From positions 80,486,659 to 80,550,658 of the forward strand of contig CM049313.1 of the NCBI GenBank assembly GCA_026874595.1: a DNA stretch of 64,000 nt. The letters run 5' to 3'. The notes under the pieces were generated by a model, which did not search any database, was not told where the DNA came from, and saw only the letters and a program-made list of their open reading frames with translations. This DNA is from Sipunculus nudus (lineage: Eukaryota > Annelida > Sipuncula > Golfingiida > Sipunculidae). The position numbers were made by a program, and so were the translations under genes. Numbering within the stretch: position 1 is the stretch's first letter; each line of letters begins with the position of its first letter. Of this stretch, positions 6 through 63,363 are shown piece by piece.

Positions 6-24
6 ATTTCCGGTCACTTCCGGC
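6..24 (-). promoter_or_regulatory. ETS-type doublet (two TTCCGG cores)
   Basis: TTCCGG occurs at 8-13 and 18-23, separated by TCAC. The second core reads GCCGGAAGTG on the minus strand (15-24), which matches the GABP/ETS consensus. The doublet is present at the start of every unit. Binding is inferred from the motif alone. Confidence 0.35.
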
Positions 25-51
25 AAGCGTTCGACCTCAGGTCGTCTAGTT

Positions 52-74
52 TGTCTGTCTGTCTGTCTGTCTGT
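52..74 (+). repeat. (TGTC)n microsatellite, first tract
   Basis: This is an uninterrupted TGTC/CTGT tract followed by the imperfect continuation TTTATTTGTCTGTATG. The tract has the same length in the units compared by eye, which is unusual for a tetranucleotide repeat and supports recent unit amplification. Confidence 0.9.
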
Positions 75-190
75 TTATTTGTCTGTATGTACACGCTCTA
101 CAGGCCACAGTTTTTAAGCAATCGCTCTGAAACTTATGCATTAGGTGTAAGATTGGTTCTCCTCGGAGCCTATTGTTTTTGGTCATGATC

Positions 191-215
191 GGTCAAAGGT
201 CAAGGTCAAGGTCAC
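191..215 (+). promoter_or_regulatory. Three abutting AGGTCA nuclear-receptor half-sites
   Basis: AGGTCA is repeated at 197-202, 203-208 and 209-214 with no spacer, preceded by a GGTCA at 191-195. The second and third also read TCAAGGTCA, the extended monomer site of FTZ-F1/SF-1 and ERR-type receptors. The block is kept in all eleven units. Runs of AGGTCA are common in molluscan repeats, so this may be a simple-repeat remnant rather than a functional element. Confidence 0.4.
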
Positions 216-342
216 CAAAAAAACTAACATTTTTACTTTCTTCATATCTTTGTCAATAATAATCGTAGCCGCATAATCTGTAGCTCATTTTATTCCTCTT
301 AATGTTAGCTTTCCAAGTGCTAGCAAATTTTTCTGGTCGATT

Positions 343-356
343 GTTACCATCGTAAC
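343..356 (+). promoter_or_regulatory. Imperfect X-box-like palindrome
   Basis: GTTACCATCGTAAC differs by one base from the perfect palindrome at 789-802. The sequence after each palindrome is also similar (a T-rich run, GGGG and AAAA), so the two are paralogous copies within the decayed leader repeats, 446 bases apart (about three ~150-bp periods). Confidence 0.3.
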
Positions 357-640
357 GTATTTTTGGGGGAAAATCAGAAAATTCGAAAATTTCACTCAAA
401 ATTTTTCATTTTTTAAGTTAGAGAGGTCTAGTTTTTTGCATTGTGTAGCATTTAATATGCTCTATGGAAAATTAACGGGAGTCTCGCAAAATCTCGTGCC
501 ATTTGTCGTCAAATGAGACTTTTCGAGATTTCATTAAAAACGATTTAGAGTTGGCAGTTTTACAGCTAATGTTCTAAAAGTGACATATTTTCTGTTTTTC
601 TGTATTATCTCGAACTTGTTTTTTCATTTTTTGAAATTAG

Positions 641-653
641 CCACCAGGGGGCG
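641..653 (+). promoter_or_regulatory. Perfect CTCF-type core motif, one per unit
   Basis: CCACCAGGGGGCG is identical to the core of the vertebrate CTCF consensus (TGGCCACCAGGGGGCGCTA); the base before it is G, as in the consensus. The exact 13-mer is retained in all eleven units: 641, 6867, 13094, 19326, 25568, 33273, 39133, 45032, 50903, 56764 and 62621 (start positions). It survives in unit 7, where surrounding sequence carries many single-base indels. CTCF and its motif are conserved across bilaterians, so binding is plausible in an invertebrate. It is inferred, not shown. Confidence 0.55.
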
Positions 654-788
654 TGGTACTGGAAACACTGCAACTTACCATTTTTCTGCAATACCAAAAA
701 AAAATATTAAACGTGGCACAATGTTTACTGTCTTATCTGAAACTAGGATCGTCGGCTTATTCCTGCGTACATGTAGCTTTGCGCTGCT

Positions 789-802
789 GTTACCATGGTA
801 AC
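789..802. promoter_or_regulatory. Perfect palindromic RFX X-box-like site, one per unit
   Basis: GTTACCATGGTAAC is a 14-bp perfect palindrome and fits the RFX X-box consensus (GTTNCCATGGNAAC), the element of ciliary gene promoters. Copies start at 789, 7015, 13242, 19474, 25717, 33421, 45181, 51051, 56922 and 62769. Unit 7 has a one-base deletion in it (near 39282). A diverged version with GGTTAC at its end lies at 63939, beyond the second gap. Confidence 0.4.
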
Positions 803-1413
803 CAAATTTTGGGGTAAAACTTGGCAATCTGAAAATAATAACTTTTTTGCTTCTATCTCTGTTAATATTTATACTACAAGTGTCTAGTTTTCTGCATGAG
901 GTAGCATTCCCTTGCCACTAATGCAGTTAATTGCAAGTCTCGTAGAATCTCGCTCTGTTTTCCGTCAAACGAGAAATTACGAGATTTCACAGAAATGCAT
1001 ATAACTTGGTCACCTTTTCGGCTAAAGAGGAGTAGTTTTCAGCATTTTGTTGCGTTTTGGGAGCTTAACAAGATAATAACTTATATCTCGCCACATCTCG
1101 TACCATCTCCCGCCAAACGAGAATATTCGAGAATTCGAACAAATGTCTATATCTCTGTCATTTGAATGCCAGAGATTTTATTTTTCTATTGTTCAAGATT
1201 CACTTGACTAGTTTGAAGTGACAAAATTGAATATCTCGTCATATCTCGCATCATTTCTTGTCAAACGAGAACATGGGACCATTCAAAGATACGCCTATAA
1301 TTCTGTTATTTTAATGCTGAAGACCTTTAGTTTTCAGCATTCGATAGCGTCTAACACTCTCGGTCACATTAATATGTTTATATTGTAAGTTTCGTCAAAT
1401 CTGGGATCGTTTT

Positions 1414-1806
1414 TTCTTCAAATAAAAAAGTACATCCTATTGCCGTGACCATAAGTGGCGGCAGTATGTGATAGTAAATGTCGGCAGGAGCATTACACTT
1501 GACAGTTGGAGCCGTGTTCTATGGGTGTGCGATGGCCCATGAAGAAGACTTCTATTGTGTTGTTATCGTCTTCCTTTGATTGCTGCTTCGTAAGCTTCAC
1601 AGACCAGCGCCAACCACCTGGTTGCCATGTGTCCTCAATGTAAACAACCTTTGCTGTTTTCCTTTCCCTAAGATATGTATGGTAGCCTGTTCACTTGTCC
1701 TTAGATTGTTTATTGTTGGTGTATTGAAGTAAAATAAAATGCCAGGTTTTCCTGCAAATTGATTGTAAATTGAATAAAATCATACAAGAACCAACCAATG
1801 TTCTAT
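1414..1806. other. Unique spacer between leader and sub-repeat array
   Basis: About 390 bases, single copy in each unit and well conserved between units. The minus strand holds a 65-codon open frame without an early ATG (1493-1690). The encoded stretch includes WQPGGWRWSVKLTK and IEVFFMGHRTP, which I do not recognise. In unit 10 a one-base deletion near 57630 replaces the stop with a longer reading frame. In unit 5 and unit 9, indels open other frames. AATAAA words occur near 1733-1740 and 1771 on the plus strand. No gene is called. Confidence 0.6.
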
Positions 1807-4019
1807 GACCACTATTTCAGATTTGAGATCAGAACAATTGATTTCTGCATAAACCACTATGACCAGATTTGATAAACTTTAAAGTGGTCTATATTTTTTT
1901 CTGAAGAAGTTGAGCTATATGCTTGGAGATGCCAGCCAGTGGGTGTGAATGGATTGCAATGAAACCCAAGCCAGGTGTTTGTGAAGAGTCTGGTGGAGAT
2001 GAAGGGGGCCAAAACCTATTTGACTGTGTATAAGCATAAACTGGCCTGAAATCAGGTTTCTGGGGGCATGAAATTTTTGTTTGTGGGAACAGGGTAATAT
2101 TTTCTTGTTTCCCTGTATATACACCCTAAACTGGGCCTAATGACACCAAAACCAGGTTTGTGGGACCATCAGTACAGATTTGAGGGGGGAAAATGGATTT
2201 TATCTGTATATCACTATGTTCACTGTGTCCAGATTTGGAAATTCAAACTGGTCCTAATTTTTTTTCTGATGGAGTTGAGCCAAATGCTTTGAGATACCAG
2301 CCAGTGGGTGTAAATGGATTGCAATGATACCAAACCAGGTGTGTGTGTTGAGTTTTGTGGAGATGAGGGGGGCCAGAACCTATCTGACTGTGTATAAGCA
2401 TAAACTGGCCTGAAATCAGGTTTCTGGGGGCTTGAAATTCTTGTTTGTGTCAACAGGGTAATATTATCTTGTTTCCCTGTATATACACCTTGAATTGGGC
2501 CTAATGACACCTAAACCATGTTTTAGGGACCATCATTACAGATTTGAGGGAAAAAAAAATGGATTTTCCCTGTATATCACTATGTTCACTGTGTCCAGAT
2601 TTGGAAATTCAAACTGGCCCTAATTTTTTTTCTGAGGGAGTTGAGCCAAATGCTTGGTGATGCCAGCCAGTGGGTGTAAATGGATTGCAATGATACCCAA
2701 ACCAGGAGTGTGTGTTGAGTTTTGTGGATATGAAGGGGGCCAGAACCTATTTGACTGTGTATAAGCATAAACTGGCCTGAAATCAGGTTTCTGGGGGCAT
2801 GAAATTTTTGTTTGTGGGAACAGGGTAATATTATCTTGTTTCCCTGTATATACACCCTAAACTGGGTCTAATGACACCAAAACCAGGTTTGTGGGACCAT
2901 CAGTACAGATTTGAGGGGGGAAAATGGATTTTCTCTGTATATCACTATGTTCACTGTGTCCAGATTTGGAAATTCAAACTGGCCCTAATTTTTTTCTGAG
3001 GGAGTTGAGCCAAATGCTTGGTGATGCCAGCCAGTGGGTGTAAATGGATTGCAATGATACCCAAACCAGGAGTGTGTGTTGAGTTTTGTGGGGATGAGGG
3101 GGGCCAGAACCTATTTGACTGTGTATAAGCATAAACTGGCCTGAAATCAGGTTTCTGGGGGCATGAAATTTTTGTTTGTGGGAACAGGGTAATATTATCT
3201 TGTTTCCCTGTATATACACACTAAACTGGGCCTAATGACACCAAAACCAGGTTTGTGGGACCATCAGTACAGATTTGAGGGGAAAAAATGGATTTTTTCT
3301 GTATATCACTATGTCCACTGTGTCCAGATTTGGAAATTCAAACTGGCCCTAATTTTTTTCTGAGGGAGTTGAGCCAAATGCTTGGTGATGCCAGCCAGTG
3401 GGTGTAAATGGATTGCAATGATACCCAAACCAGGAGTGTGTGTTGAGTTTTGTGGGGATGAGGGGGGCCAGAACCTATTTGACTGTGTATAAGCATAAAC
3501 TGGCCTGAAATCAGGTTTCTGGGGGCATGAAATTTTTGTTTGTGGGAACAGGGTAATATTATCTTGTTTCCCTGTATATACACACTAAACTGGGCCTAAT
3601 GACACCAAAACCAGGTTTGTGGGACCATCAGTACAGATTTGAGGGGAAAAAATGGATTTTTTCTGTATATCACTATGTCCACTGTGTCCAGATTTGGAAA
3701 TTCAAACTGGCCCTAATTTTTTTTCTGAGAGATTTGAACCAAATGCTTTGAGATTCCAGCCAGTGGGTGTAAATGGATTGCAATGATAGCCAAACCAGGT
3801 GTGTGTGATGAGTCTGGTGGAGATGAGGTGGTCCAAAACACTATTTGCCTGTGTATAATAAGCCATATACTGTACTCAGCTGAAATCAGCTTTCTGGGGG
3901 CTTGAAATGTTTGCTGGTGGGAACAAGGTAAAATTATCTTGTTATCATGGATATACACCCTAAAATGGGTCTAAGAACACCAAATACATGCATGTTGGAC
4001 CATGAGTACAGATTTGAGG
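1807..4019 (+). repeat. Sub-repeat array of unit 1: six ~364-bp copies
   Basis: Landmark GTTGAG (or its variant) falls at 1909, 2274, 2640, 3004, 3368 and ~3733, giving periods of 365, 366, 364, 364 and 365. Copies 4 and 5 look identical over a full period. Copies 1 and 6 are the most diverged. This is the usual pattern of satellites homogenised in the centre and decaying at the edges. Each copy contains the near-palindrome CCTGAAATCAGG. Minus-strand open frames of 69-96 codons exist in each copy, but 364 is not a multiple of three, so no continuous repeat protein is possible. Confidence 0.95.
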
Positions 4020-5700: not shown

Positions 5701-6052
5701 CGGACGCAGGCTGACCGACTGCCTTTTTTCTTCAAGGACAGCCCTAATTTAAGCCATCATCAGACTTGAAGATGTCCTCAGGCCGACCTATTTGTCCAGG
5801 AATGAAAGGTCACGTCTCCCTTACCCAGAGGTCGGGTCTCTGTCTAACACGAACGCGGCTTCGCTTGCATTTCGGCATTCTGGACGTTCAACTCTTCAAG
5901 TTTCATTTTCAGTGCTTTTCTTATTTCCAGCACTCAAGAATAGGAGAACTGCCAAGGATTCAGTTGGACTTCCTTTATTTTTATTTCTGTCCAAAAATGG
6001 ATTATCCTGTGTAGGATGGCTACTAATAACAACACTATTAATGTCTCTCTAT

Positions 6053-6054
6053 CC

Positions 6055-6086
<32 letters not shown>

Positions 6087-6090
6087 GTCT
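6053..6090 (+). repeat. (GTCT)n microsatellite, second tract
   Basis: A GTCT tract with one CTCTCT interruption, about 200 bases before the first tract of the next unit (6278-6300). A third short TGTCTGTCTG lies at 6191-6200. Reading frames through these tracts give SVCL or DRQT peptide repeats, which are artefacts. Confidence 0.9.
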
Positions 6091-6226: not shown

Positions 6227-9200
6227 GTCTTATTTCCGGTCACTTCCGGCAAGCGTTCGACCTCAGGTCGTCTAGTTTGTCTGTCTGTCTGTCTGTCTGT
6301 TTATTTGTCTGTATGTACACGCTCTACAGGCCACAGTTTTTAAGCAATCGCTCTGAAACTTATGCATTAGGTGTAAGATTGGTTCTCCTCGGAGCCTATT
6401 GTTTTTGGTCATGATCGGTCAAAGGTCAAGGTCAAGGTCACCAAAAAAACTAACATTTTTACTTTCTTCATATCTTTGTCAATAATAATCGTAGCCGCAT
6501 AATCTGTAGCTCATTTTATTCCTCTTAATGTTAGCTTTCCAAGTGCTAGCAAATTTTTCTGGTCGATTGTTACCATCGTAACGTATTTTTGGGGGAAAAT
6601 CAGAAAATTCGAAAATTTCACTCAAAATTTTTCATTTTTTAAGTTAGAGAGGTCTAGTTTTTTGCATTGTGTAGCATTTAATATGCTCTATGGAAAATTA
6701 ACGGGAGTCTCGCAAAATCTCGTGCCATTTGTCGACAAATGAGACTTTTCGAGATTTCATTAAAAACGATTTAGAGTTGGCAGTTTTACAGCTAATGTTC
6801 TAAAAGTGACATATTTTCTGTTTTTCTGTATTATCTCGAACTTGTTTTTTCATTTTTTGAAATTAGCCACCAGGGGGCGTGGTACTGGAAACACTGCAAC
6901 TTACCATTTTTCTGCAATACCAAAAAAAAATATTAAACGTGGCACAATGTTTACTGTCTTATCTGAAACTAGGATCGTCGGCTTATTCCTGCGTACATGT
7001 AGCTTTGCGCTGCTGTTACCATGGTAACCAAATTTTGGGGTAAAACTTGGCAATCTGAAAATAATAACTTTTTTGCTTCTATCTCTGTTAATATTTATAC
7101 TACAAGTGTCTAGTTTTCTGCATGAGGTAGCATTCCCTTGCCACTAATGCAGTTAATTGCAAGTCTCGTAGAATCTCGCTCTGTTTTCCGTCAAACGAGA
7201 AATTACGAGATTTCACAGAAATGCATATAACTTGGTCACCTTTTCGGCTAAAGAGGAGTAGTTTTCAGCATTTTGTTGCGTTTTGGGAGCTTAACAAGAT
7301 AATAACTTATATCTCGCCACATCTCGTACCATCTCCCGCCAAACGAGAATATTCGAGAATTCGAACAAATGTCTATATCTCTGTCATTTGAATGCCAGAG
7401 ATTTTATTTTTCTATTGTTCAAGATTCACTTGACTAGTTTGAAGTGACAAAATTGAATATCTCGTCATATCTCGCATCATTTCTTGTCAAACGAGAACAT
7501 GGGACCATTCAAAGATACGCCTATAATTCTGTTATTTTAATGCTGAAGACCTTTAGTTTTCAGCATTCGATAGCGTCTAACACTCTCGGTCACATTAATA
7601 TGTTTATATTGTAAGTTTCGTCAAATCTGGGATCGTTTTTTCTTCAAATAAAAAAGTACATCCTATTGCCGTGACCATAAGTGGCGGCAGTATGTGATAG
7701 TAAATGTCGGCAGGAGCATTACACTTGACAGTTGGAGCCGTGTTCTATGGGTGTGCGATGGCCCATGAAGAAGACTTCTATTGTGTTGTTATCGTCTTCC
7801 TTTGATTGCTGCTTCGTAAGCTTCACAGACCAGCGCCAACCACCTGGTTGCCATGTGTCCTCAATGTAAACAACCTTTGCTGTTTTCCTTTCCCTAAGAT
7901 ATGTATGGTAGCCTGTTCACTTGTCCTTAGATTGTTTATTGTTGGTGTATTGAAGTAAAATAAAATGCCAGGTTTTCCTGCAAATTGATTGTAAATTGAA
8001 TAAAATCATACAAGAACCAACCAATGTTCTATGACCACTATTTCAGATTTGAGATCAGAACAATTGATTTCTGCATAAACCACTATGACCAGATTTGATA
8101 AACTTTAAAGTGGTCTATATTTTTTTCTGAAGAAGTTGAGCTATATGCTTGGAGATGCCAGCCAGTGGGTGTGAATGGATTGCAATGAAACCCAAGCCAG
8201 GTGTTTGTGAAGAGTCTGGTGGAGATGAAGGGGGCCAAAACCTATTTGACTGTGTATAAGCATAAACTGGCCTGAAATCAGGTTTCTGGGGGCATGAAAT
8301 TTTTGTTTGTGGGAACAGGGTAATATTTTCTTGTTTCCCTGTATATACACCCTAAACTGGGCCTAATGACACCAAAACCAGGTTTGTGGGACCATCAGTA
8401 CAGATTTGAGGGGGGAAAATGGATTTTATCTGTATATCACTATGTTCACTGTGTCCAGATTTGGAAATTCAAACTGGTCCTAATTTTTTTTCTGATGGAG
8501 TTGAGCCAAATGCTTTGAGATACCAGCCAGTGGGTGTAAATGGATTGCAATGATACCAAACCAGGTGTGTGTGTTGAGTTTTGTGGAGATGAGGGGGGCC
8601 AGAACCTATCTGACTGTGTATAAGCATAAACTGGCCTGAAATCAGGTTTCTGGGGGCTTGAAATTCTTGTTTGTGTCAACAGGGTAATATTATCTTGTTT
8701 CCCTGTATATACACCTTGAATTGGGCCTAATGACACCTAAACCATGTTTTAGGGACCATCATTACAGATTTGAGGGAAAAAAAAATGGATTTTCCCTGTA
8801 TATCACTATGTTCACTGTGTCCAGATTTGGAAATTCAAACTGGCCCTAATTTTTTTTCTGAGGGAGTTGAGCCAAATGCTTGGTGATGCCAGCCAGTGGG
8901 TGTAAATGGATTGCAATGATACCCAAACCAGGAGTGTGTGTTGAGTTTTGTGGATATGAAGGGGGCCAGAACCTATTTGACTGTGTATAAGCATAAACTG
9001 GCCTGAAATCAGGTTTCTGGGGGCATGAAATTTTTGTTTGTGGGAACAGGGTAATATTATCTTGTTTCCCTGTATATACACCCTAAACTGGGTCTAATGA
9101 CACCAAAACCAGGTTTGTGGGACCATCAGTACAGATTTGAGGGGGGAAAATGGATTTTCTCTGTATATCACTATGTTCACTGTGTCCAGATTTGGAAATT

Positions 9201-12453: not shown

Positions 12454-15400
12454 GTCTTATTTCCGGTCACTTCCGGCAAGCGTTCGACCTCAGGTCGTCT
12501 AGTTTGTCTGTCTGTCTGTCTGTCTGTTTATTTGTCTGTATGTACACGCTCTACAGGCCACAGTTTTTAAGCAATCGCTCTGAAACTTATGCATTAGGTG
12601 TAAGATTGGTTCTCCTCGGAGCCTATTGTTTTTGGTCATGATCGGTCAAAGGTCAAGGTCAAGGTCACCAAAAAAACTAACATTTTTACTTTCTTCATAT
12701 CTTTGTCAATAATAATCGTAGCCGCATAATCTGTAGCTCATTTTATTCCTCTTAATGTTAGCTTTCCAAGTGCTAGCAAATTTTTCTGGTCGATTGTTAC
12801 CATCGTAACGTATTTTTGGGGGAAAATCAGAAAATTCGAAAATTTCACTCAAAATTTTTCATTTTTTAAGTTAGAGAGGTCTAGTTTTTTGCATTGTGTA
12901 GCATTTAATATGCTCTATGGAAAATTAACGGGAGTCTCGCAAAATCTCGTGCCATTTGTCGTCAAATGAGACTTTTCGAGATTTCATTAAAAACGATTTA
13001 GAGTTGGCAGTTTTACAGCTAATGTTCTAAAAGTGACATATTTTCTGTTTTTCTGTATTATCTCGAACTTGTTTTTTCATTTTTTGAAATTAGCCACCAG
13101 GGGGCGTGGTACTGGAAACACTGCAACTTACCATTTTTCTGCAATACCAAAAAAAAATATTAAACGTGGCACAATGTTTACTGTCTTATCTGAAACTAGG
13201 ATCGTCGGCTTATTCCTGCGTACATGTAGCTTTGCGCTGCTGTTACCATGGTAACCAAATTTTGGGGTAAAACTTGGCAATCTGAAAATAATAACTTTTT
13301 TGCTTCTATCTCTGTTAATATTTATACTACAAGTGTCTAGTTTTCTGCATGAGGTAGCATTCCCTTGCCACTAATGCAGTTAATTGCAAGTCTCGTAGAA
13401 TCTCGCTCTGTTTTCCGTCAAACGAGAAATTACGAGATTTCACAGAAATGCATATAACTTGGTCACCTTTTCGGCTAAAGAGGAGTAGTTTTCAGCATTT
13501 TGTTGCGTTTTGGGAGCTTAACAAGATAATAACTTATATCTCGCCACATCTCGTACCATCTCCCGCCAAACGAGAATATTCGAGAATTCGAACAAATGTC
13601 TATATCTCTGTCATTTGAATGCCAGAGATTTTATTTTTCTATTGTTCAAGATTCACTTGACTAGTTTGAAGTGACAAAATTGAATATCTCGTCATATCTC
13701 GCATCATTTCTTGTCAAACGAGAACATGGGACCATTCAAAGATACGCCTATAATTCTGTTATTTTAATGCTGAAGACCTTTAGTTTTCAGCATTCGATAG
13801 CGTCTAACACTCTCGGTCACATTAATATGTTTATATTGTAAGTTTCGTCAAATCTGGGATCGTTTTTTCTTCAAATAAAAAAGTACATCCTATTGCCGTG
13901 ACCATAAGTGGCGGCAGTATGTGATAGTAAATGTCGGCAGGAGCATTACACTTGACAGTTGGAGCCGTGTTCTATGGGTGTGCGATGGCCCATGAAGAAG
14001 ACTTCTATTGTGTTGTTATCGTCTTCCTTTGATTGCTGCTTCGTAAGCTTCACAGACCAGCGCCAACCACCTGGTTGCCATGTGTCCTCAATGTAAACAA
14101 CCTTTGCTGTTTTCCTTTCCCTAAGATATGTATGGTAGCCTGTTCACTTGTCCTTAGATTGTTTATTGTTGGTGTATTGAAGTAAAATAAAATGCCAGGT
14201 TTTCCTGCAAATTGATTGTAAATTGAATAAAATCATACAAGAACCAACCAATGTTCTATGACCACTATTTCAGATTTGAGATCAGAACAATTGATTTCTG
14301 CATAAACCACTATGACCAGATTTGATAAACTTTAAAGTGGTCTATATTTTTTTCTGAAGAAGTTGAGCTATATGCTTGGAGATGCCAGCCAGTGGGTGTG
14401 AATGGATTGCAATGAAACCCAAGCCAGGTGTTTGTGAAGAGTCTGGTGGAGATGAAGGGGGCCAAAACCTATTTGACTGTGTATAAGCATAAACTGGCCT
14501 GAAATCAGGTTTCTGGGGGCATGAAATTTTTGTTTGTGGGAACAGGGTAATATTTTCTTGTTTCCCTGTATATACACCCTAAACTGGGCCTAATGACACC
14601 AAAACCAGGTTTGTGGGACCATCAGTACAGATTTGAGGGGGGAAAATGGATTTTATCTGTATATCACTATGTTCACTGTGTCCAGATTTGGAAATTCAAA
14701 CTGGTCCTAATTTTTTTTCTGATGGAGTTGAGCCAAATGCTTTGAGATACCAGCCAGTGGGTGTAAATGGATTGCAATGATACCAAACCAGGTGTGTGTG
14801 TTGAGTTTTGTGGAGATGAGGGGGGCCAGAACCTATCTGACTGTGTATAAGCATAAACTGGCCTGAAATCAGGTTTCTGGGGGCTTGAAATTCTTGTTTG
14901 TGTCAACAGGGTAATATTATCTTGTTTCCCTGTATATACACCTTGAATTGGGCCTAATGACACCTAAACCATGTTTTAGGGACCATCATTACAGATTTGA
15001 GGGAAAAAAAAATGGATTTTCCCTGTATATCACTATGTTCACTGTGTCCAGATTTGGAAATTCAAACTGGCCCTAATTTTTTTTCTGAGGGAGTTGAGCC
15101 AAATGCTTGGTGATGCCAGCCAGTGGGTGTAAATGGATTGCAATGATACCCAAACCAGGAGTGTGTGTTGAGTTTTGTGGATATGAAGGGGGCCAGAACC
15201 TATTTGACTGTGTATAAGCATAAACTGGCCTGAAATCAGGTTTCTGGGGGCATGAAATTTTTGTTTGTGGGAACAGGGTAATATTATCTTGTTTCCCTGT
15301 ATATACACCCTAAACTGGGTCTAATGACACCAAAACCAGGTTTGTGGGACCATCAGTACAGATTTGAGGGGGGAAAATGGATTTTCTCTGTATATCACTA

Positions 15401-18686: not shown

Positions 18687-21600
18687 GTCTTATTTCCGGT
18701 CACTTCCGGCAAGCGTTCGACCTCAGTCGTCTAGTTTGTCTGTCTGTCTGTCTGTCTGTTTATTTGTCTGTATGTACACGCTCTACAGGCCACAGTTTTT
18801 AAGCAATCGCTCTGAAACTTATGCATTAGGTGTAAGATTGGTTCTCCTCGGAGCCTATTGTTTTTGGTCATGATCGGTCAAAGGTCAAGGTCAAGGTCAC
18901 CAAAAAAACTAACATTTTTACTTTCTTCATATCTTTGTCAATAATAATCGTAGCCGCATAATCTGTAGCTCATTTTATTCCTCTTAATGTTAGCTTTCCA
19001 AGTGCTAGCAAATTTTTCTGGTCGATTGTTACCATCGTAACGTATTTTTGGGGGAAAATCAGAAAATTCGAAAATTTCACTCAAAATTTTTCATTTTTTA
19101 AGTTAGAGAGGTCTAGTTTTTTGCATTGTGTAGCATTTAATATGCTCTATGGAAAATTAACGGGAGTCTCGCAAAATCTCGTGCCATTTGTCGTCAAATG
19201 AGACTTTTCGAGATTTCATTAAAAACGATTTAGAGTTGGCAGTTTTACAGCTAATGTTCTAAAAGTGACATATTTTCTGTTTTTCTGTATTATCTCGAAC
19301 TTGTTTTTTCATTTTTTGAAATTAGCCACCAGGGGGCGTGGTACTGGAAACACTGCAACTTACCATTTTTCTGCAATACCAAAAAAAAATATTAAACGTG
19401 GCACAATGTTTACTGTCTTATCTGAAACTAGGATCGTCGGCTTATTCCTGCGTACATGTAGCTTTGCGCTGCTGTTACCATGGTAACCAAATTTTGGGGT
19501 AAAACTTGGCAATCTGAAAATAATAACTTTTTTGCTTCTATCTCTGTTAATATTTATACTACAAGTGTCTAGTTTTCTGCATGAGGTAGCATTCCCTTGC
19601 CACTAATGCAGTTAATTGCAAGTCTCGTAGAATCTCGCTCTGTTTTCCGTCAAACGAGAAATTACGAGATTTCACAGAAATGCATATAACTTGGTCACCT
19701 TTTCGGCTAAAGAGGAGTAGTTTTCAGCATTTTGTTTGCGTTTTGGGAGCTTAACAAGATAATAACTTATATCTCGCCACATCTCGTACCATCTCCCGCC
19801 AAACGAGAATATTCGAGAATTCGAACAAATGTCCTATATCTCTGTCATTTGAATGCCAGAGATTTTATTTTTCTATTGTTCAAGATTCACTTGACTAGTT
19901 TGAAGTGACAAAATTGAATATCTCGTCATATCTCGCATCATTTCTTGTCAAACGAGAACATGGGACCATTCAAAGATACGCCTATAATTCTGTTATTTTA
20001 ATGCTGAAGACCTTTAGTTTTCAGCATTCGATAGCGTCTAACACTCTCGGTCACATTAATATGTTTATATTGTAAGTTTCGTCAAATCTGGGATCGTTTT
20101 TTCTTCAAATAAAAAAGTACATCCTATTGCCGTGACCATAAGTGGCGGCAGTATGTGATAGTAAATGTCGGCAGGAGCATTACACTTGACAGTTGGAGCC
20201 GTGTTCTATGGGTGTGCGATGGCCCATGAAGAAGACTTCTATTGTGTTGTTATCGTCTTCCTTTGATTGCTGCTTCGTAAGCTTCACAGACCAGCGCCAA
20301 CCACCTGGTTGCCATGGTGTCCTCAATGTAAACAACCTTTGCTGTTTTCCTTTCCCCTAAGATATGTATGGTAGCCTGTTCACTTGTCCTTAGATTGTTT
20401 ATTGTTGGTGTATTGAAGTAAAATAAAATGCCAGGTTTTCCTGCAAATTGATTGTAAATTGAATAAAATCATACAAGAACCAACCAATGTTCTATGACCA
20501 CTATTTCAGATTTGAGATCAGAACAATTGATTTCTGCATAAACCACTATGACCAGATTTGATAAACTTTAAAGTGGTCTATATTTTTTTCTGAAGAAGTT
20601 GAGCTATATGCTTGGAGATGCCAGCCAGTGGGTGTGAATGGATTGCAATGAAACCCAAGCCAGGTGTTTGTGAAGAGTCTGGTGGAGATGAAGGGGGCCA
20701 AAACCTATTTGACTGTGTATAAGCATAAACTGGCCTGAAATCAGGTTTCTGGGGGCATGAAATTTTTGTTTGTGGGAACAGGGTAATATTTTCTTGTTTC
20801 CCTGTATATACACCCTAAACTGGGCCTAATGACACCAAAACCAGGTTTGTGGGACCATCAGTACAGATTTGAGGGGGGAAAATGGATTTTATCTGTATAT
20901 CACTATGTTCACTGTGTCCAGATTTGGAAATTCAAACTGGTCCTAATTTTTTTTTCTGATGGAGTTGAGCCAAATGCTTTGAGATACCAGCCAGTGGGTG
21001 TAAATGGATTGCAATGATACCAAACCAGGTGTGTGTGTTGAGTTTTGTGGAGATGAGGGGGGCCAGAACCTATCTGACTGTGTATAAGCATAAACTGGCC
21101 TGAAATCAGGTTCTGGGGGCTTGAAATTCTTGTTTGTGTCAACAGGGTAATATTATCTTGTTTCCCTGTATATACACCTTGAATTGGGCCTAATGACACC
21201 TAAACCATGTTTTAGGGACCATCATTACAGATTTGAGGGAAAAAAAAATGGATTTTCCCTGTATATCACTATGTTCACTGTGTCCAGATTTGGAAATTCA
21301 AACTGGCCCTAATTTTTTTTCTGAGGGAGTTGAGCCAAATGCTTGGTGATGCCAGCCAGTGGGTGTAAATGGATTGCAATGATACCCAAACCAGGAGTGT
21401 GTGTTGAGTTTTGTGGATATGAAGGGGGCCAGAACCTATTTGACTGTGTATAAGCATAAACTGGCCTGAAATCAGGTTTCTGGGGGCATGAAATTTTTGT
21501 TTGTGGGAACAGGGTAATATTATCTTGTTTCCCTGTATATACACCCTAAACTGGGTCTAATGACACCAAAACCAGGTTTGTGGGACCATCAGTACAGATT

Positions 21601-24927: not shown

Positions 24928-26736
24928 GTCTTATTTCCGGTCACTTCCGGCAAGCGTTCGACCTCAGGTCGTCTAGTTTGTCTGTCTGTCTGTCTGTCTG
25001 TTTATTTGTCTGTATGTACACGCTCTACAGGCCACAGTTTTTAAGCAATCGCTCTGAAACTTATGCATTAGGTGTAAGATTGGTTCTCCTCGGAGCCTAT
25101 TGTTTTTGGTCATGATCGGTCAAAGGTCAAGGTCAAGGTCACCAAAAAAACTAACATTTTTACTTTCTTCATATCTTTGTCAATAATAATCGTAGCCGCA
25201 TAATCTGTAGCTCATTTTATTCCTCTTAATGTTAGCTTTCCAAGTGCTAGCAAATTTTTCTGGTCGATTGTTACCATCGTAACGTATTTTTGGGGGAAAA
25301 TCAGAAAATTCGAAAATTTCACTCAAAATTTTTCATTTTTTAAGTTAGAGAGGTCTAGTTTTTTGCATTGTGTAGCATTTAATATGCTCTATGGAAAATT
25401 AACGGGAGTCTCGCAAAATCTCGTGCCATTTGTCGTCAAATGAGACTTTTCGAGATTTCATTAAAAACGATTTAGAGTTGGCAGTTTTACAGCTAATGTT
25501 CTAAAAGTGACATATTTTCTGTTTTTCTGTATTATCTCGAACTTGTTTTTTCATTTTTTGAAATTAGCCACCAGGGGGCGTGGTACTGGAAACACTGCAA
25601 CTTACCATTTTTCTGCAATACCAAAAAAAAATATTAAACGTGGCACAATGTTTACTGTCTTATCTGAAACTAGGATCGTCGGCTTATTCCTGCGTTACAT
25701 GTAGCTTTGCGCTGCTGTTACCATGGTAACCAAATTTTGGGGTAAAACTTGGCAATCTGAAAATAATAACTTTTTTGCTTCTATCTCTGTTAATATTTAT
25801 ACTACAAGTGTCTAGTTTTCTGCATGAGGTAGCATTCCCTTGCCACTAATTGCAGTTAATTGCAAGTCTCGTAGAATCTCGCTCTGTTTTCCGTCAAACG
25901 AGAAATTACGAGATTTCACAGAAATGCATATAACTTGGTCACCTTTTCGGCTAAAGAGGAGTAGTTTTCAGCATTTTGTTGCGTTTTGGGAGCTTAACAA
26001 GATAATAACTTATATCTCGCCACATCTCGTACCATCTCCCGCCAAACGAGAATATTCGAGAATTCGAACAAATGTCTATATCTCTGTCATTTGAATGCCA
26101 GAGATTTTATTTTTCTATTGTTCAAGATTCACTTGACTAGTTTGAAGTGACAAAATTGAATATCTCGTCATATCTCGCATCATTTCTTGTCAAACGAGAA
26201 CATGGGACCATTCAAAGATACGCCTATAATTCTGTTATTTTAATGCTGAAGACCTTTAGTTTTCAGCATTCGATAGCGTCTAACACTCTCGGTCACATTA
26301 ATATGTTTATATTGTAAGTTTCGTCAAATCTGGGATCGTTTTTTCTTCAAATAAAAAAGTACATCCTATTGCCGTGACCATAAGTGGCGGCAGTATGTGA
26401 TAGTAAATGTCGGCAGGAGCATTACACTTGACAGTTGGAGCCGTGTTCTATGGGTGTGCGATGGCCCATGAAGAAGACTTCTATTGTGTTGTTATCGTCT
26501 TCCTTTGATTGCTGCTTCGTAAGCTTTCACAGACCAGCGCCAACCACCTGGTTGCCATGTGTCCTCAATGTAAACAACCTTTGCTGTTTTCCTTTCCCTA
26601 AGATATGTATGGTAGCCTGTTCACTTGTCCTTAGATTGTTTATTGTTGGTGTATTGAAGTAAATAAAAATGCCAGGTTTTCCTGCAAATTGATTGTAAAT
26701 TGAATAAAATCATACAAGAACCAACCAATGTTCTAT

Positions 26737-29700
26737 GACCACTATTTCAGATTTGAGATCAGAACAATTGATTTCTGCATAAACCACTATGACCAGATTT
26801 GATAAACTTTAAAGTGGTCTATATTTTTTTCTGAGAAGTTGAGCTATATGCTTGGAGATGCCAGCCAGTGGGTGTGAATGGATTGCAATGAAACCCAAGC
26901 CAGGTGTTTGTGAAGAGTCTGGTGGAGATGAAGGGGGCCAAAACCTATTTGACTGTGTATAAGCATAAACTGGCCTGAAATCAGGTTTCTGGGGGCATGA
27001 AATTTTTGTTTGTGGGAACAGGGTAATATTTTCTTGTTTCCCTGTATATACACCCTAACTGGGCCTAATGACACCAAAACCAGGTTTGTGGGACCATCAG
27101 TACAGATTTGAGGGGGGAAAATGGATTTTATCTGTATATCACTATGTTCACTGTGTCCAGATTTGGAAATTCAAACTGGTCCTAATTTTTTTTTCTGATG
27201 GAGTTGAGCCAAATGCTTTGAGATACCAGCCAGTGGGTGTAAATGGATTGCAATGATACCAAACCAGGTGTGTGTGTTGAGTTTTGTGGAGATGAGGGGG
27301 GCCAGAACCTATCTGACTGTGTATAAGCATAAACTGGCCTGAAATCAGGTTTCTGGGGGCTTGAAATTCTTGTTTGTGTCAACAGGGTAATATTATCTTG
27401 TTTCCCTGTATATACACCTTGAATTGGGCCTAATGACACCTAAACCATGTTTTAGGGACCATCATTACAGAATTTGAGGGAAAAAAAAATGGATTTTCCC
27501 TGTATATCACTATGTTCACTGTGTCCAGATTTGGAAATTCAAACTGGCCCTAATTTTTTTTCTGAGGGGAGTTGAGCCAAATGCTTGGTGATGCCAGCCA
27601 GTGGGTGTAAATGGATTGCAATGATACCCAAACCAGGAGTGTGTGTTGAGTTTTGTGGATATGAAGGGGGCCAGAACCTATTTGACTGTGTATAAGCATA
27701 AACTGGCCTGAAATCAGGTTTCTGGGGGCATGAAATTTTTGTTTGTGGGAACAGGGTAATATTATCTTGTTTCCCTGTATATACACCCTAAACTGGGTCT
27801 AATGACACCAAAACCAGGTTTGTGGGACCATCAGTACAGATTTGAGGGGGGAAAATGGATTTTCTCTGTATATCACTATGTTCACTGTGTCCAGATTTGG
27901 AAATTCAAACTGGCCCTAATTTTTTTCTGAGGGAGTTGAGCCAAATGCTTGGTGATGCCAGCCAGTGGGTGTAAATGGATTGCAATGATACCCAAACCAG
28001 GAGTGTGTGTTGAGTTTTGTGGGGATGAGGGGGGCCAGAACCTATTTGACTGTGTATAAGCATAAACTGGCCTGAAATCAGGTTTCTGGGGGCATGAAAT
28101 TTTTGTTTGTGGGAACAGGGTAATATTATCTTGTTCCCTGTATATACACACTAAACTGGGCCTAATGACACCAAAACCAGGTTTGTGGGACCATCAGTAC
28201 AGATTTGAGGGGAAAAAATGGATTTTTTCTGTATATCACTATGTCCACTGTGTCCAGATTTGGAAATTCAAACTGGCCCTAATTTTTTTCTGAGGGAGTT
28301 GAGCCAAATGCTTGGTGATGCCAGCCAGTGGGTGTAAATGGATTGCAATGATACCCAAACCAGGAGTGTGTGTTGAGTTTTGTGGGGATGAGGGGGGCCA
28401 GAACCTATTTGACTGTGTATAAGCATAAACTGGCCTGAAATCAGGTTTCTGGGGGCATGAAATTTTTGTTTGTGGGAACAGGGTAATANNNNNNNNNNNN
28501 NNNNNNNNNNNNNNNNNNNNNNNNNNNNNNNNNNNNNNNNNNNNNNNNNNNNNNNNNNNNNNNNNNNNNNNNNNNNNNNNNNNNNNNNNNNNNNNNNNNN
28601 NNNNNNNNNNNNNNNNNNNNNNNNNNNNNNNNNNNNNNNNNNNNNNNNNNNNNNNNNNNNNNNNNNNNNNNNNNNNNNNNNNNNNNNNNNNNNNNNNNNN
28701 NNNNNNNNNNNNNNNNNNNNNNNNNNNNNNNNNNNNNNNNNNNNNNNNNNNNNNNNNNNNNNNNNNNNNNNNNNNNNNNNNNNNNNNNNNNNNNNNNNNN
28801 NNNNNNNNNNNNNNNNNNNNNNNNNNNNNNNNNNNNNNNNNNNNNNNNNNNNNNNNNNNNNNNNNNNNNNNNNNNNNNNNNNNNNNNNNNNNNNNNNNNN
28901 NNNNNNNNNNNNNNNNNNNNNNNNNNNNNNNNNNNNNNNNNNNNNNNNNNNNNNNNNNNNNNNNNNNNNNNNNNNNNNNNNNNNNNNNTTCCACTGTGTC
29001 CAGATTTGGAAATTCAAACTGGCCCTAATTTTTTTTCTGAGGGAGTTGAGCCAAATGCTTGGTGATGCCAGCCAGTGGGTGTAAATGGATTGCAATGATA
29101 CCCAAACCAGGAGTGTGTGTTGAGTTTTGTGGATATGAAGGGGGCCAGAACCTATCTGACTGTGTATAAGCATAAACTGGCCTGAAATCAGGTTTCTGGG
29201 GGCATGAAATTTTTGTTTGTGGGAACAGGGTAATATTATCTTGTTTCCCTGTATATACACCCTAAACTGGGTCTAATGACACCAAAACCAGGTTTGTGGG
29301 GACCATCAGTACAGATTTGAGGGGGGAAAATGGATTTTCTCTGTATATCACTATGTTCACTGTGTCCAGATTTGGAAATTCAAACTGGCCCTAATTTTTT
29401 CTGAGGGAGTTGAGCCAAATGCTTGGTGATGCCAGCCAGTGGGTGTAAATGGATTGCAATGATACCCAAACCAGGAGTGTGTGTTGAGTTTTGTGGGGAT
29501 GAGGGGGGCCAGAACCTATTTGACTGTGTATAAGCATAAACTGGCCTGAAATCAGGTTTCTGGGGCATGAAATTTTTGTTTGTGGGAACAGGGGTAATAT
29601 TATCTTGTTTCCCTGTATATACACACTAAACTGGGCCTAATGACACCAAAACCAGGTTTGTGGGACCATCAGTACAGATTTGAGGGGAAAAAATGGATTT

Positions 29701-32631: not shown

Positions 32632-35600
32632 GTCTTATTTCCGGTCACTTCCGGCAAGCGTTCGACCTCAGGTCGTCTAGTTTGTCTGTCTGTCTGTCTG
32701 TCTGTTTATTTGTCTGTATGTACACGCTCTACAGGCCACAGTTTTTAAGCAATCGCTCTGAAACTTATGCATTAGGTGTAAGATTGGTTCTCCTCGGAGC
32801 CTATTGTTTTTGGTCATGATCGGTCAAAGGTCAAGGTCAAGGTCACCAAAAAAACTAACATTTTTACTTTCTTCATATCTTTGTCAATAATAATCGTAGC
32901 CGCATAATCTGTAGCTCATTTTATTCCTCTTAATGTTAGCTTTCCAAGTGCTAGCAAATTTTTCTGGTCGATTGTTACCATCGTAACGTATTTTTGGGGG
33001 AAAATCAGAAAATTCGAAAATTTCACTCAAAATTTTTCATTTTTTAAGTTAGAGAGGTCTAGTTTTTTGCATTGTGTAGCATTTAATATGCTCTATGGAA
33101 AATTAACGGGAGTCTCGCAAAATCTCGTGCCATTTGTCGTCAAATGAGACTTTTCGAGATTTCATTAAAAAACGATTTAGAGTTGGCAGTTTTACAGCTA
33201 ATGTTCTAAAAGTGACATATTTCTGTTTTTCTGTATTATCTCGAACTTGTTTTTTTCATTTTTTGAAATTAGCCACCAGGGGGCGTGGTACTGGAAACAC
33301 TGCAACTTACCATTTTTCTGCAATACCAAAAAAAAATATTAAACGTGGCACAATGTTTACTGTCTTATCTGAAACTAGGATCGTCGGCTTATTCCTGCGT
33401 ACATGTAGCTTTGCGCTGCTGTTACCATGGTAACCAAATTTTGGGGTAAAACTTGGCAATCTGAAAATAATAACTTTTTTGCTTCTATCTCTGTTAATAT
33501 TATACTACAAGTGTCTAGTTTTCTGCATGAGGTAGCATTCCCTTGCCACTAATGCAGTTAATTGCAAGTCTCGTAGAATCTCGCTCTGTTTCCGTCAAAC
33601 GAGAAATTACGAGATTTCACAGAAATGCATATAACTTGGTCACCTTTTCGGCTAAAGAGGAGTAGTTTTCAGCATTTTGTTGCGTTTTGGGAGCTTAACA
33701 AGATAATAACTTATATCTCGCCACATCTCGTACCATCTCCCGCCAAACGAGAATATTCGAGAATTCGAACAAATGTCTATATCTCTGTCATTTGAATGCC
33801 AGAGATTTTATTTTTCTATTGTTCAAGATTCACTTGACTAGTTTGAAGTGACAAAATTGAATATCTCGTCATATCTCGCATCATTTCTTGTCAAACGAGA
33901 ACATGGGACCATTCAAAGATACGCCTATAATTCTGTTATTTTAATGCTGAAGACCTTTAGTTTTCAGCATTCGATAGCGTCTAACACTCTCGGTCACATT
34001 AATATGTTTATATTGTAAGTTTCGTCAAATCTGGGATCGTTTTTTCTTCAAATAAAAAAGTACATCCTATTGCCGTGACCATAAGTGGCGGCAGTATGTG
34101 ATAGTAAATGTCGGCAGGAGCATTACACTTGACAGTTGGAGCCGTGTTCTATGGGTGTGCGATGGCCCATGAAGAAGACTTCTATTGTGTTGTTATCGTC
34201 TTCCTTTGATTGCTGCTTCGTAAGCTTCACAGACCAGCGCCAACCACCTGTTGCCATGTGTCCTCAATGTAAACAACCTTTGCTGTTTTCCTTTCCCTAA
34301 GATATGTATGGTAGCCTGTTCACTTGTCCTTAGATTGTTTATTGTTGGTGTATTGAAGTAAAATAAAATGCCAGGTTTTCCTGCAAATTGATTGTAAATT
34401 GAATAAAATCATACAAGAACCAACCAATGTTCTATGACCACTATTTCAGATTTGAGATCAGAACAATTGATTTCTGCATAAACCACTATGACCAGATTTG
34501 ATAAACTTTAAAGTGGTCTATATTTTTTTCTGAAGAAGTTGAGCTATATGCTTGGAGATGCCAGCCAGTGGGTGTGAATGGATTGCAATGAAACCCAAGC
34601 CAGGTGTTTGTGAAGAGTCTGGTGGAGATGAAGGGGGCCAAAACCTATTTGACTGTGTATAAGCATAAACTGGCCTGAAATCAGGTTTCTGGGGGCTTGA
34701 AATTCTTGTTTGTGTCAACAGGGTAATATTATCTTGTTTCCCTGTATATACACCTTGAATTGGGCCTAATGACACCTAAACCATGTTTTAGGGACCATCA
34801 TTACAGATTTGAGGGAAAAAAAAATGGATTTTCCCTGTATATCACTATGTTCACTGTGTCCAGATTTGGAAATTCAAACTGGCCCTAATTTTTTTTCTGA
34901 GGGAGTTGAGCCAAATGCTTGGTGATGCCAGCCAGTGGGTGTAAATGGATTGCAATGATACCCAAACCAGGAGTGTGTGTTGAGTTTTGTGGATATGAAG
35001 GGGGCCAGAACCTATCTGACTGTGTATAAGCATAAACTGGCCTGAAATCAGGTTTCTGGGGGCATGAAATTTTTGTTTGTGGGAACAGGGTAATATTATC
35101 TTGTTTCCCTGTATATACACCCTAAACTGGGTCTAATGACACCAAAACCAGGTTTGTGGGACCATCAGTACAGATTTGAGGGGGGAAAATGGATTTTCTC
35201 TGTATATCACTATGTTCACTGTGTCCAGATTTGGAAATTCAAACTGGCCCTAATTTTTTTCTGAGGGAGTTGAGCCAAATGCTTGGTGATGCCAGCCAGT
35301 GGGTGTAAATGGATTGCAATGATACCCAAACCAGGAGTGTGTGTTGAGTTTTGTGGGGATGAGGGGGGCCAGAACCTATTTGACTGTGTATAAGCATAAA
35401 CTGGCCTGAAATCAGGTTTCTGGGGGCATGAAATTTTTGTTTGTGGGAACAGGGTAATATTATCTTGTTTCCCTGTATATACACACTAAACTGGGCCTAA
35501 TGACACCAAAACCAGGTTTGTGGGACCATCAGTACAGATTTGAGGGGAAAAATGGATTTTTTCTGTATATCACTATGTCCACTGTGTCCAGATTTGGAAA

Positions 35601-61981: not shown

Positions 61982-63363
61982 GTCTTATTTCCGGTCACTT
62001 CCGGCAAGCGTTCGACCTCAGGTCGTCTAGTTTGTCTGTCTGTCTGTCTGTCTGTTTATTTGTCTGTATGTACACGCTCTACAGGCCACAGTTTTTAAGC
62101 AATCGCTCTGAAACTTATGCATTAGGTGTAAGATTGGTTCTCCTCGGAGCCTATTGTTTTTGGTCATGATCGGTCAAAGGTCAAGGTCAAGGTCACCAAA
62201 AAAACTAACATTTTTACTTTCTTCATATCTTTGTCAATAATAATCGTAGCCGCATAATCTGTAGCTCATTTTATTCCTCTTATGTTAGCTTTCCAAGTGC
62301 TAGCAAATTTTTCTGGTCGATTGTTACCATCGTAACGTATTTTTGGGGGAAAATCAGAAAATTCGAAAATTTCACTCAAAATTTTTCATTTTTTAAGTTA
62401 GAGAGGTCTAGTTTTTTGCATTGTGTAGCATTTAATATGCTCTATGGAAAATTAACGGGAGTCTCGCAAAATCTCGTGCCATTTGTCGTCAAATGAGACT
62501 TTTCGAGATTTCATTAAAAACGATTTAGAGTTGGCAGTTTTACAGCTAATGTTCTAAAAGTGACATATTTTCTGTTTTTCTGTATTATCTCGAACTTGTT
62601 TTTTCATTTTTTGAAATTAGCCACCAGGGGGCGTGGTACTGGAAACACTGCAACTTACCATTTTTCTGCAATACCAAAAAAAAATATTAAACGTGGCACA
62701 ATGTTTACTGTCTTATCTGAAACTAGGATCGTCGGCTTATTCCTGCGTACATGTAGCTTTGCGCTGCTGTTACCATGGTAACCAAATTTTGGGGTAAAAC
62801 TTGGCAATCTGAAAATAATAACTTTTTTTGCTTCTATCTCTGTTAATATTTATACTACAAGTGTCTAGTTTTCTGCATGAGGTAGCATTCCCTTGCCACT
62901 AATGCAGTTAATTGCAAGTCTCGTAGAATCTCGCTCTGTTTTCCGTCAAACGAGAAATTACGAGATTTCACAGAAATGCATATAACTTGGTCACCTTTTC
63001 GGCTAAAGAGGAGTAGTTTTCAGCATTTTGTTGCGTTTTGGGAGCTTAACAAGATAATAACTTATATCTCGCCACATCTCGTACCATCTCCCGCCAAACG
63101 AGAATATTCGAGAATTCGAACAAATGTCTATATCTCTGTCATTTGAATGCCAGAGATTTTATTTTTCTATTGTTCAAGATTCACTTGACTAGTTTGAAGT
63201 GACAAAATTGAATATCTCGTCATATCTCGCATCATTTCTTGTCAAACGAGAACATGGGACCATTCAAAGATACGCCTATAATTCTGTTATTTTAATGCTG
63301 AAGACCTTTAGTTTTTCAGCATTCGATAGCGTCTAACACTCTCGGTCACATTAATATGTTTAT
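61982..63363 (+). repeat. Macrosatellite unit 11, partial (leader only)
   Basis: It contains the ETS doublet, microsatellite, AGGTCA block, CTCF core (62621-62633), X-box (62769-62782) and most of the decayed ~150-bp repeats. It is cut by the gap, so its sub-repeat architecture is unknown. Confidence 0.95.

What the first reader, a model, noticed from the sequence alone, without database searches (positions are those of the whole stretch)
641..653. One perfect CTCF core motif in every unit
The 13-base core CCACCAGGGGGCG is exact in all eleven units. A given 13-mer is expected about 0.0002 times on both strands of a random 6.2-kb sequence. The vertebrate macrosatellites DXZ4 and D4Z4 also carry CTCF sites in each unit and organise chromatin, so a regular array of sites ~6 kb apart could act as a boundary or loop anchor. 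All motifs point the same way, which matters for loop extrusion.
Basis: partly seen in the sequence, partly recalled or inferred. Interest (0 to 1): 0.75.

Follow-up and report, generated by a model that had tools for sequence, protein, structure and literature searches.

The report
Transposon-borne CTCF motif in macrosatellite
The perfect binding motif for the genome-folding protein CTCF is really in every unit of this tandem repeat, but it appears to have come there as part of an abundant transposon that carries the same motif to many other places in the genome; whether it folds chromatin is untested.

Summary
Observation confirmed: CCACCAGGGGGCG is exact, + strand, in 11 of 11 units and is a strong CTCF match. 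The argument built on it fails: units are 99.9% identical and 74-78% of their 13-mers are equally invariant, so "exact in every unit" is one site copied by amplification. The unnamed 1.43-Gb host genome holds 3,767 exact copies, the reversed pattern none. Of 70 sampled, 61 lie in one repeat family; a complete solo copy has Helentron (HINE/DINE-1-type) ends. The window is a head-to-tail array of HINE-derived units near the end of contig C8. CTCF is a plausible reader: the host has a CTCF orthologue, and a different canonical CTCF 16-mer occurs 314 times against 2. In diverged copies drawn without the motif, the footprint was the best-conserved block in one draw and unbeaten when pooled, but the second draw alone did not show this. 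Best reading: a CTCF-competent site kept by the transposon lineage. Boundary or loop function is unproven; orientation flips within the C8 cluster. Novelty: a Helentron-borne, invertebrate version of transposon-spread CTCF sites.

The parts
641..653 (+). CTCF core 13-mer, unit 1
6867..6879 (+). CTCF core 13-mer, unit 2
13094..13106 (+). CTCF core 13-mer, unit 3
19326..19338 (+). CTCF core 13-mer, unit 4
25568..25580 (+). CTCF core 13-mer, unit 5
33273..33285 (+). CTCF core 13-mer, unit 6
39133..39145 (+). CTCF core 13-mer, unit 7
45032..45044 (+). CTCF core 13-mer, unit 8
50903..50915 (+). CTCF core 13-mer, unit 9
56764..56776 (+). CTCF core 13-mer, unit 10
62621..62633 (+). CTCF core 13-mer, unit 11
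49..1464 (+). dispersed repeat body that carries the motif in unit 1; also found solo and in about 1.27-kb tandem arrays elsewhere
   Evidence: blastn of unit 1 against 40 sampled loci, 65-99% identity, pieces
18..43 (+). HINE-type 3' end of the preceding copy: 3' subTIR TTCCGGCAAGC (18-28) and palindrome GACCTCAGGTC (33-43); in the window 11 such subTIRs, palindrome exact behind 10 of them
52..90 (.). (TGTC)n microsatellite at the head of unit 1
200..214 (+). TCAAGGTCAAGGTCA, nuclear-receptor-like half sites (label recalled); 11 copies in the window
789..802 (+). GTTACCATGGTAAC, X-box-like palindrome (label recalled), starting 148 bases after the start of the CTCF core; exact in 10 of 11 units
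646..656 (-). overlapping CCACGCCCCCT, SP/KLF-like box on the other strand (label recalled); a rival reading
   Evidence: CCACGCCCC 11 times on the - strand
1894..4019 (.). internal 364-bp tandem repeats of unit 1 (5.8 copies; 4.8-4.9 in the shorter units 6-10)
6042..6090 (.). second (TGTC)n microsatellite, near the 3' end of unit 1
6244..6269 (+). HINE-type 3' end closing unit 1 (subTIR 6244-6254, palindrome 6259-6269)
28489..28988 (.). 500-N assembly gap inside the 364-bp array of unit 5
63364..63863 (.). 500-N assembly gap

Best explanation
The 13-mer is a canonical CTCF-type recognition site that came into the array as part of a non-autonomous Helentron-like transposon (HINE type). The transposon lineage carried it as part of a small platform (CTCF core, then an X-box-like palindrome 143-151 bases on, with AGGTCA half sites upstream) and spread it over the genome. 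A 6-kb derivative was then amplified head to tail into macrosatellites, which fixed one CTCF site per unit. Inferred: host CTCF can bind these sites where the repeat is not silenced; the most likely benefit is to the element (an open entry point in germline or embryo), and any boundary effect of the array is a by-product. Shown: family membership of most sampled copies, ends, genome-wide copy number of the 13-mer, host CTCF gene, genome-wide motif enrichment. Not shown: occupancy, expression, mobility, insulation.
For: 13-mer 1736 + 2031 times in the genome, 0 for the reversed pattern. 61 of 70 sampled instances have family flanks, confirmed with the motif masked. HINE ends in solo copy L087 and HINE 3' ends in the window, fitting passages of PMC4067079 and PMC7492417. 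Host CTCF: best hit E 3.5e-101, 58% identity over 273 residues, next best 41%; E 1.6e-113 to the CTCF chain of PDB 7w1m. Helix positions -1, 2, 3, 6 identical in fingers 3, 4 and 5, 12 of 12 (read; finger numbers recalled). Canonical 16-mer CCASYAGRKGGCRCTA 314 against 2. Motif-free draw 1: 13-mer the best conserved of 259 windows in 32 copies, 23 exact; in the 11 most diverged of these the six top windows all overlap the footprint. Pooled 16 diverged copies: none of 164 other 16-base windows is higher (best other equal to three decimals), random-column p 0.0003. The form shared by diverged relatives, TAGCCACCAGGGGGCGCTG, scores 27.3 against 21.1 bits for the window form.
Against: Motif-free draw 2: of 20 copies fetched, 14 have another module (the HINE head) at that place, 1 (L130) is unrelated there, and the 5 homologous ones are all degenerate (0 of 20 contain the exact 13-mer); the two motif places rank 118 and 183 of 222. 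In the youngest subfamily the core is no better conserved than its neighbour except at one column (94 of 100 listed exact against 70 of 100; 21 of those 30 deviants come from one column, counted by eye). In one search the 13-base window is exceeded by 12 of 172 others, and the 16-base footprint was chosen. The window form lacks the CTG that follows the core in the diverged copies. The window has no 5' subTIR. Some of the 314 sites sit in repeats of their own (pairs 7,010 bases apart). No binding data.
Confidence: 0.66

Rival explanations
1. Hitchhiker: the 13-mer is simply part of the repeat's sequence, amplified with it, and is not bound because the arrays are silenced.
For: Invariance is explained by homogenisation alone. 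Young copies show no clear extra constraint beyond neighbouring sequence. The homologous copies of draw 2 are degenerate.
Against: The footprint is the best-conserved stretch in draw 1 and unbeaten in the pooled diverged set; the host genome is enriched for canonical CTCF sites.
Confidence: 0.27
2. Boundary or loop anchor: the array is a CTCF-dense insulator like DXZ4 or D4Z4, stopping cohesin from one side.
For: Eleven same-way sites about 6 kb apart in the window and more in the C8 cluster; CTCF-like motifs are reported at TAD borders or loop anchors in cephalopods (PMC9023564, PMC12407938, passages).
Against: Orientation flips in the C8 and C9 clusters; the same motif lies in thousands of other places, in the C1 sample solo or in arrays of about 1.27 kb; in an annelid active CTCF motifs are mostly in promoters without clear direction (PMC7854359, passages); a TAD boundary is preserved on deletion of the CTCF-rich Firre locus (PMC5899154, title and abstract start in the listing).
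Confidence: 0.1
3. SP/KLF-type site: the reader is a KLF/SP factor on CCACGCCCCC (other strand), and the CTCF match is incidental.
For: CCACGCCCC is present 11 times on the - strand of the window.
Against: The diverged relatives with an intact core have CTG, not TGG, after it, so the SP/KLF box is missing where the CTCF core is kept.
Confidence: 0.06
4. A sequence needed in cis by the transposition machinery or by replication of the element, unrelated to CTCF.
For: It sits in a well-conserved core of the element (rows conditioned on the exact motif).
Against: In draw 1 the conserved bases coincide with the CTCF footprint including the CTG behind it, and the core is enriched outside the family too (8 of 40 sampled loci, against 0.11-0.29 expected by composition).
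Confidence: 0.06

Closest known systems
HINE / DINE-1 (Helentron-associated interspersed elements), incl. Cg_HINE of the Pacific oyster (PMC4067079, PMC7492417, passages read)
   Same: 5' subTIR of 11 bases with a complementary inverted repeat, GTCT-type microsatellite, 3' subTIR then palindrome in solo copy L087; satellite-like tandem repeats
   Different: Internal module carries a CTCF core; tandem arrays of whole 6-kb units; the word CTCF occurs 0 times in PMC7492417 and 0 times in PMC4067079 (count in the listing)
Mammalian transposon-spread CTCF sites (rodent SINE B2 and others; PMC7520972, PMC6979391, listing only)
   Same: a mobile element distributes CTCF motifs
   Different: Helentron-type element, not a SINE (SINE class recalled); non-mammalian host; occupancy unknown
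DXZ4 and D4Z4 macrosatellites (PMC3491370, PMC2639723, listing only)
   Same: multi-kb tandem unit associated with CTCF
   Different: transposon-derived unit, related copies in many other places, no occupancy or insulation data, orientation flips in the cluster

Membership tests
HINE (non-autonomous Helentron): the family, solo copy L087 | 5' subTIR with nearby complementary inverted repeat | tested here: met
   L087: GCTTGCCGGAA at 664, TTTCGGCAAGC at 682
HINE (non-autonomous Helentron): the window unit | 5' subTIR with nearby complementary inverted repeat | tested here: not met
   0 matches in the window with up to 1 mismatch; so the unit is filed as HINE-derived, not as a complete HINE
HINE (non-autonomous Helentron) | microsatellite behind the 5' module | tested here: met
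   TGTC arrays in the window; TGTC/TGTT run read in L087
HINE (non-autonomous Helentron) | 3' subTIR followed by a palindrome | tested here: met
   window: 11 subTIRs, palindrome exact behind 10; L087 and L089 both; L088 neither in the stretch fetched
HINE (non-autonomous Helentron) | insertion between T and T, empty site | tested here: inconclusive
   T-rich flanks at both ends of one copy, L087; no empty site sought
HINE (non-autonomous Helentron) | no coding capacity; autonomous Helentron partner | tested here: inconclusive
   0 Pfam families at E up to 0.1 in 10 ORFs of the unit; partner not searched
CTCF binding site | match to the consensus | tested here: met
   21.1 of 29.5 bits, recalled matrix
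CTCF binding site | host CTCF with compatible fingers | tested here: inconclusive
   fingers 3-5: 12 of 12 specificity positions identical to the CTCF of PDB 7w1m; finger 2: 2 of 4, finger 6: 1 of 4, finger 7: 2 of 4 (read; numbering recalled)
CTCF binding site | occupancy in vivo | not testable with these tools
   no functional data
DXZ4/D4Z4-like insulator macrosatellite | large tandem unit with CTCF motif in each | tested here: met
DXZ4/D4Z4-like insulator macrosatellite | CTCF occupancy and boundary or insulator activity | not testable with these tools
   needs CUT&RUN and Hi-C
   uniform in the window, but 14 minus then 19 plus copies in the C8 cluster; scaffolding errors possible

The most novel reading that the evidence does not exclude
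A Helentron family uses a CTCF platform (CTCF core, X-box about one nucleosome away, AGGTCA sites) as its own conserved regulatory core and has supplied most perfect CTCF core sites of this animal genome, turning chromosome ends and internal repeat clusters into CTCF-dense arrays that change its 3D organisation.
Probability: 0.2. Interest if true: 0.8.

Novelty: new variant of a known kind. Interest (0 to 1): 0.52.

Why it matters
Transposon-driven spread of CTCF sites is, as far as I recall and as the listing suggests, described mainly for mammals. Here a Helentron-type element in another animal appears to carry thousands of such sites. That makes testable whether CTCF site turnover by transposons, and cohesin stopping at them, is general in animals, and whether satellite-forming Helentrons gain from binding CTCF.

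Tried and rejected
Rfam at gathering scores (0), tRNA scan (0), Pfam on 10 ORFs of the unit (0): no recognisable gene or RNA. Host: the number and size of large contigs made me guess abalone; the mollusc haemocyanin domain PF14830 gave 0 matches, but the 14 control genomes also gave 0, so the host stays unidentified; the abalone paper search rested on that guess. The telomere pattern did not complete, so 'subtelomeric' is not claimed. Counts of the core followed by CTG or by TGG genome-wide did not complete. A search with L087:1730-2000 did not complete and was dropped. One search was a mistaken query (window:1-60) and says nothing. In notebook entry 3 the fingers are numbered one too high (ZF4-6 for ZF3-5), and notebook entry 6 says 15 of 20 for the HINE head in draw 2; one search shows 14 plus one unrelated. 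The report has the mended figures.

Rows left out: sampling of the 13-mer used places listed (100 of 3,767 are listed, all on C1), from 0.29 to 48.9 Mb, leaving out some array members. Draw 1: 32 of 40 hits fetched (omitted: the query itself, 2 array copies on C9, 5 on C1). Draw 2: 20 of 39 non-self hits fetched (omitted: 18 array copies on C1 and C1:65257146). One search used 37 of 60 rows, all conditioned on the exact motif. Searches list 100 places each out of 2097, 2275, 314 and 170.

Full report
What is there. The 13-mer CCACCAGGGGGCG is at 641-653 and ten more places, always on the + strand. The window is part of a larger array: G000:C8:80486659-80550658 of an unnamed 1.43-Gb genome in 153 contigs. 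Nine of the ten spacings between the motifs are 5857-6242 bases; the one of 7705 spans a 500-N gap. The two unit lengths (about 6.23 and 5.86 kb) differ by about one copy of an internal 364-bp repeat (5.8 against 4.8-4.9 copies).

Is it more than chance? As a single event, yes: the site scores 21.1 bits with a recalled CTCF matrix and 1 of 1000 Markov-1 sequences of a unit's length does as well. As eleven events, no: the element parts are on average 99.9% identical pairwise, 948 of 1288 of their 13-mers are present in all 11, and 4589 of 5887 13-mers of a whole unit in all 10 motif-to-motif segments. Invariance and common direction follow from head-to-tail amplification.

Where the motif comes from. 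The genome holds 1736 + 2031 exact copies, the reversed pattern none; composition predicts about 3-8. I fetched 40 loci from the listed places, C1 0.29-48.9 Mb, with 70 copies. In 61 the flanks belong to one family, by eye and blastn and again with the motif masked; unit 1 matches it over window 49-1464 in pieces of 65-99% identity. The copies are solo or in tandem arrays of about 1.27 kb. Nine copies in 8 loci have no family flanks (L041 among these has a piece of the family about 365 bases away; L021 holds two copies in a repeat of its own). Eight loci still exceed the 0.11-0.29 expected in 48.6 Mb.

What the family is. A complete solo copy, L087, has a 5' subTIR GCTTGCCGGAA, its complementary repeat starting 18 bases on, a TGTC/TGTT run, and at the other end TTCCGGCAAGC followed by GACCACTGGTC. 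These are the parts that passages of PMC4067079 and PMC7492417 give for HINEs, the non-autonomous Helentrons. In the window the 3' subTIR is present 11 times (palindrome exact behind 10), followed by the microsatellite of the next unit, but no 5' subTIR is found. So the unit is HINE-derived and lost or replaced its 5' end. No Pfam domain in ten ORFs, no Rfam family. The autonomous partner was not searched.

Does the host read CTCF sites? The best match to the fingers, L049, has 58% identity over 273 residues of the typed query, the next 41%; an open frame of 887 codons from the first ATG in the locus; E 1.6e-113 to the CTCF chain of PDB 7w1m (human by recall). From that alignment I read the four specificity positions per finger: identical in fingers 3, 4 and 5 (12 of 12), 2 of 4 in finger 2, 1 of 4 in finger 6, 2 of 4 in finger 7. 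That fingers 3-5 read the G-rich half is recalled. The pattern CCASYAGRKGGCRCTA, which neither the window form (TGG after the core) nor the diverged form (CTG) fits, occurs 145 + 169 times against 1 + 1 for its reverse; among the 100 listed all degenerate positions vary, though some listed sites are pairs 7,010 bases apart, hence repeats. The genome therefore appears to use a canonical CTCF motif.

Is the site under constraint? First test, young subfamily: with flanks fixed and the core left open there are 2,097 places; of the 100 listed, 94 have the exact 13-mer. A neighbouring 16-base block (2,275 places) has 70 of 100 exact, but 21 of its 30 deviants come from one column (both counted by eye). 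No clear difference. Second test, draw 1 with a query that does not contain the motif (32 of 40 hits fetched): the 13-mer is the best conserved of 259 windows (0.94 against mean 0.78), exact in 23 of 32; 21 of these rows are close to the window's type. In the 11 most diverged the six top windows all overlap the footprint with the following CTG, the 13-mer itself being fifth; letters-only conservation of the 16-base footprint 0.879 against 0.844 for the best other window, random-column p 0.002. Two of the 11 (L094, L098) align poorly at the site. Third test, draw 2 (20 of 39 non-self hits fetched): 14 have the HINE head there, L130 is unrelated there, the 5 homologous copies are degenerate, and none of the 20 holds the exact 13-mer; the two motif places rank 118 and 183 of 222. 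Pooling the 16 diverged copies of both draws, none of 164 non-overlapping 16-base windows exceeds the footprint (0.824, best other also 0.824; p 0.0003 by random columns, which ignores relatedness and the later choice of 16 bases), while 12 of 172 13-base windows exceed the 13-mer. Reading: the ancestors of these subfamilies shared TAGCCACCAGGGGGCGCTG (27.3 bits) and individual old copies decay. That fits constraint on some transposon lineages, not on each copy, and not on the whole family.

The platform. Measured to the ACCATGGT part, CTCF core to X-box-like palindrome is 151 bases in unit 1, 150 in L086 and L087, 144 in L088 and 143 in L089; by the full 14-mer it is 148-149 in 10 of 11 units, the exact 14-mer being absent in unit 7. 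AGGTCA half sites lie upstream. The labels X-box and nuclear-receptor site are recalled; nothing was tested for them.

Place in the genome. A 42-mer of the window's type occurs 76 + 94 times; of the 100 listed (C1 to C9), 33 are at the end of C8 (80.10-80.84 of 80.87 Mb; 14 minus, then 19 plus) and 32 at the start of C9 (0-0.6 Mb, both strands), with smaller groups on C1 (66.1-66.9 Mb, 7) and C5 (64.4-66.4 Mb, 9; 92.0 Mb, 3). The last 1.7 kb of C8 and the first 1.5 kb of C9 are still repeat without a TTAGGG array. One group per chromosome would suit pericentromeres as well as chromosome ends; not tested.

Literature. CTCF sites spread by transposons are described for rodents and mammals (PMC7520972, PMC6979391; listing); CTCF-bearing macrosatellites for mammals (PMC3491370, PMC2639723; listing). 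For spiralians a review names one study with CTCF sites at TAD borders (PMC10658181, passages), the squid work (PMC9023564, passages); a later preprint reports CTCF-like motifs at loop anchors in three coleoids (PMC12407938, passages). In an annelid CTCF is the commonest motif in open chromatin, mostly in promoters, without clear direction (PMC7854359, passages). In the held library, searches for CTCF with Helitron (38 papers, 15 listed), mollusc and transposable (16, 15 listed), gastropod (15, 12 listed), bivalve with Hi-C and TAD (12 listed of 2,237) and Helentron/HINE (57, 8 listed) listed no paper whose title or abstract start joins Helentrons and CTCF sites.

Verdict. The site is most likely a transposon-borne, CTCF-competent motif; boundary function is open.

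Noticed in passing
window 63864-64000: After the second N gap the sequence reads like another subfamily of the repeat, that of the arrays in locus L009 (by eye).
   Followed up: no
G000:C1:65.1-66.9 Mb: Dense cluster of 1.26- to 1.64-kb tandem arrays of the same family in the interior of C1; C5 has a smaller group near 65 Mb. Candidate pericentromeres.
   Followed up: no
G000:C16, also C7, C9, C11: Many matches to the CTCF finger query (323 in all, a lower bound), many of them on C16 in long open frames: large C2H2 zinc-finger gene clusters.
   Followed up: no
L049 25-2688: Host CTCF appears to lie in one uninterrupted open frame of at least 887 codons, with a glutamine-rich N-terminal part.
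   Followed up: no
L089 rc 1956 and 2100: A diverged relative carries two CTCF cores 144 bases apart, then the X-box-like site 143 on: a repeated module of about 145 bases.
   Followed up: partly
window, 33 copies of CAAACGAGA: TCTCGTCAAACGAGA-like hairpins recur about three times per unit and in the relatives; role unknown.
   Followed up: no
L021 (C1:10096550-10102400): Two exact 13-mers 4.85 kb apart in identical near flanks unrelated to the family: another repeat carrying the motif.
   Followed up: no
G000:C2:33337522/33344532, C4:56550694/56557704, C1:98204446/98211456: Pairs of CCACTAGGTGGCACTA exactly 7,010 bases apart on three contigs: a further dispersed element with two CTCF-type sites.
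   Followed up: no
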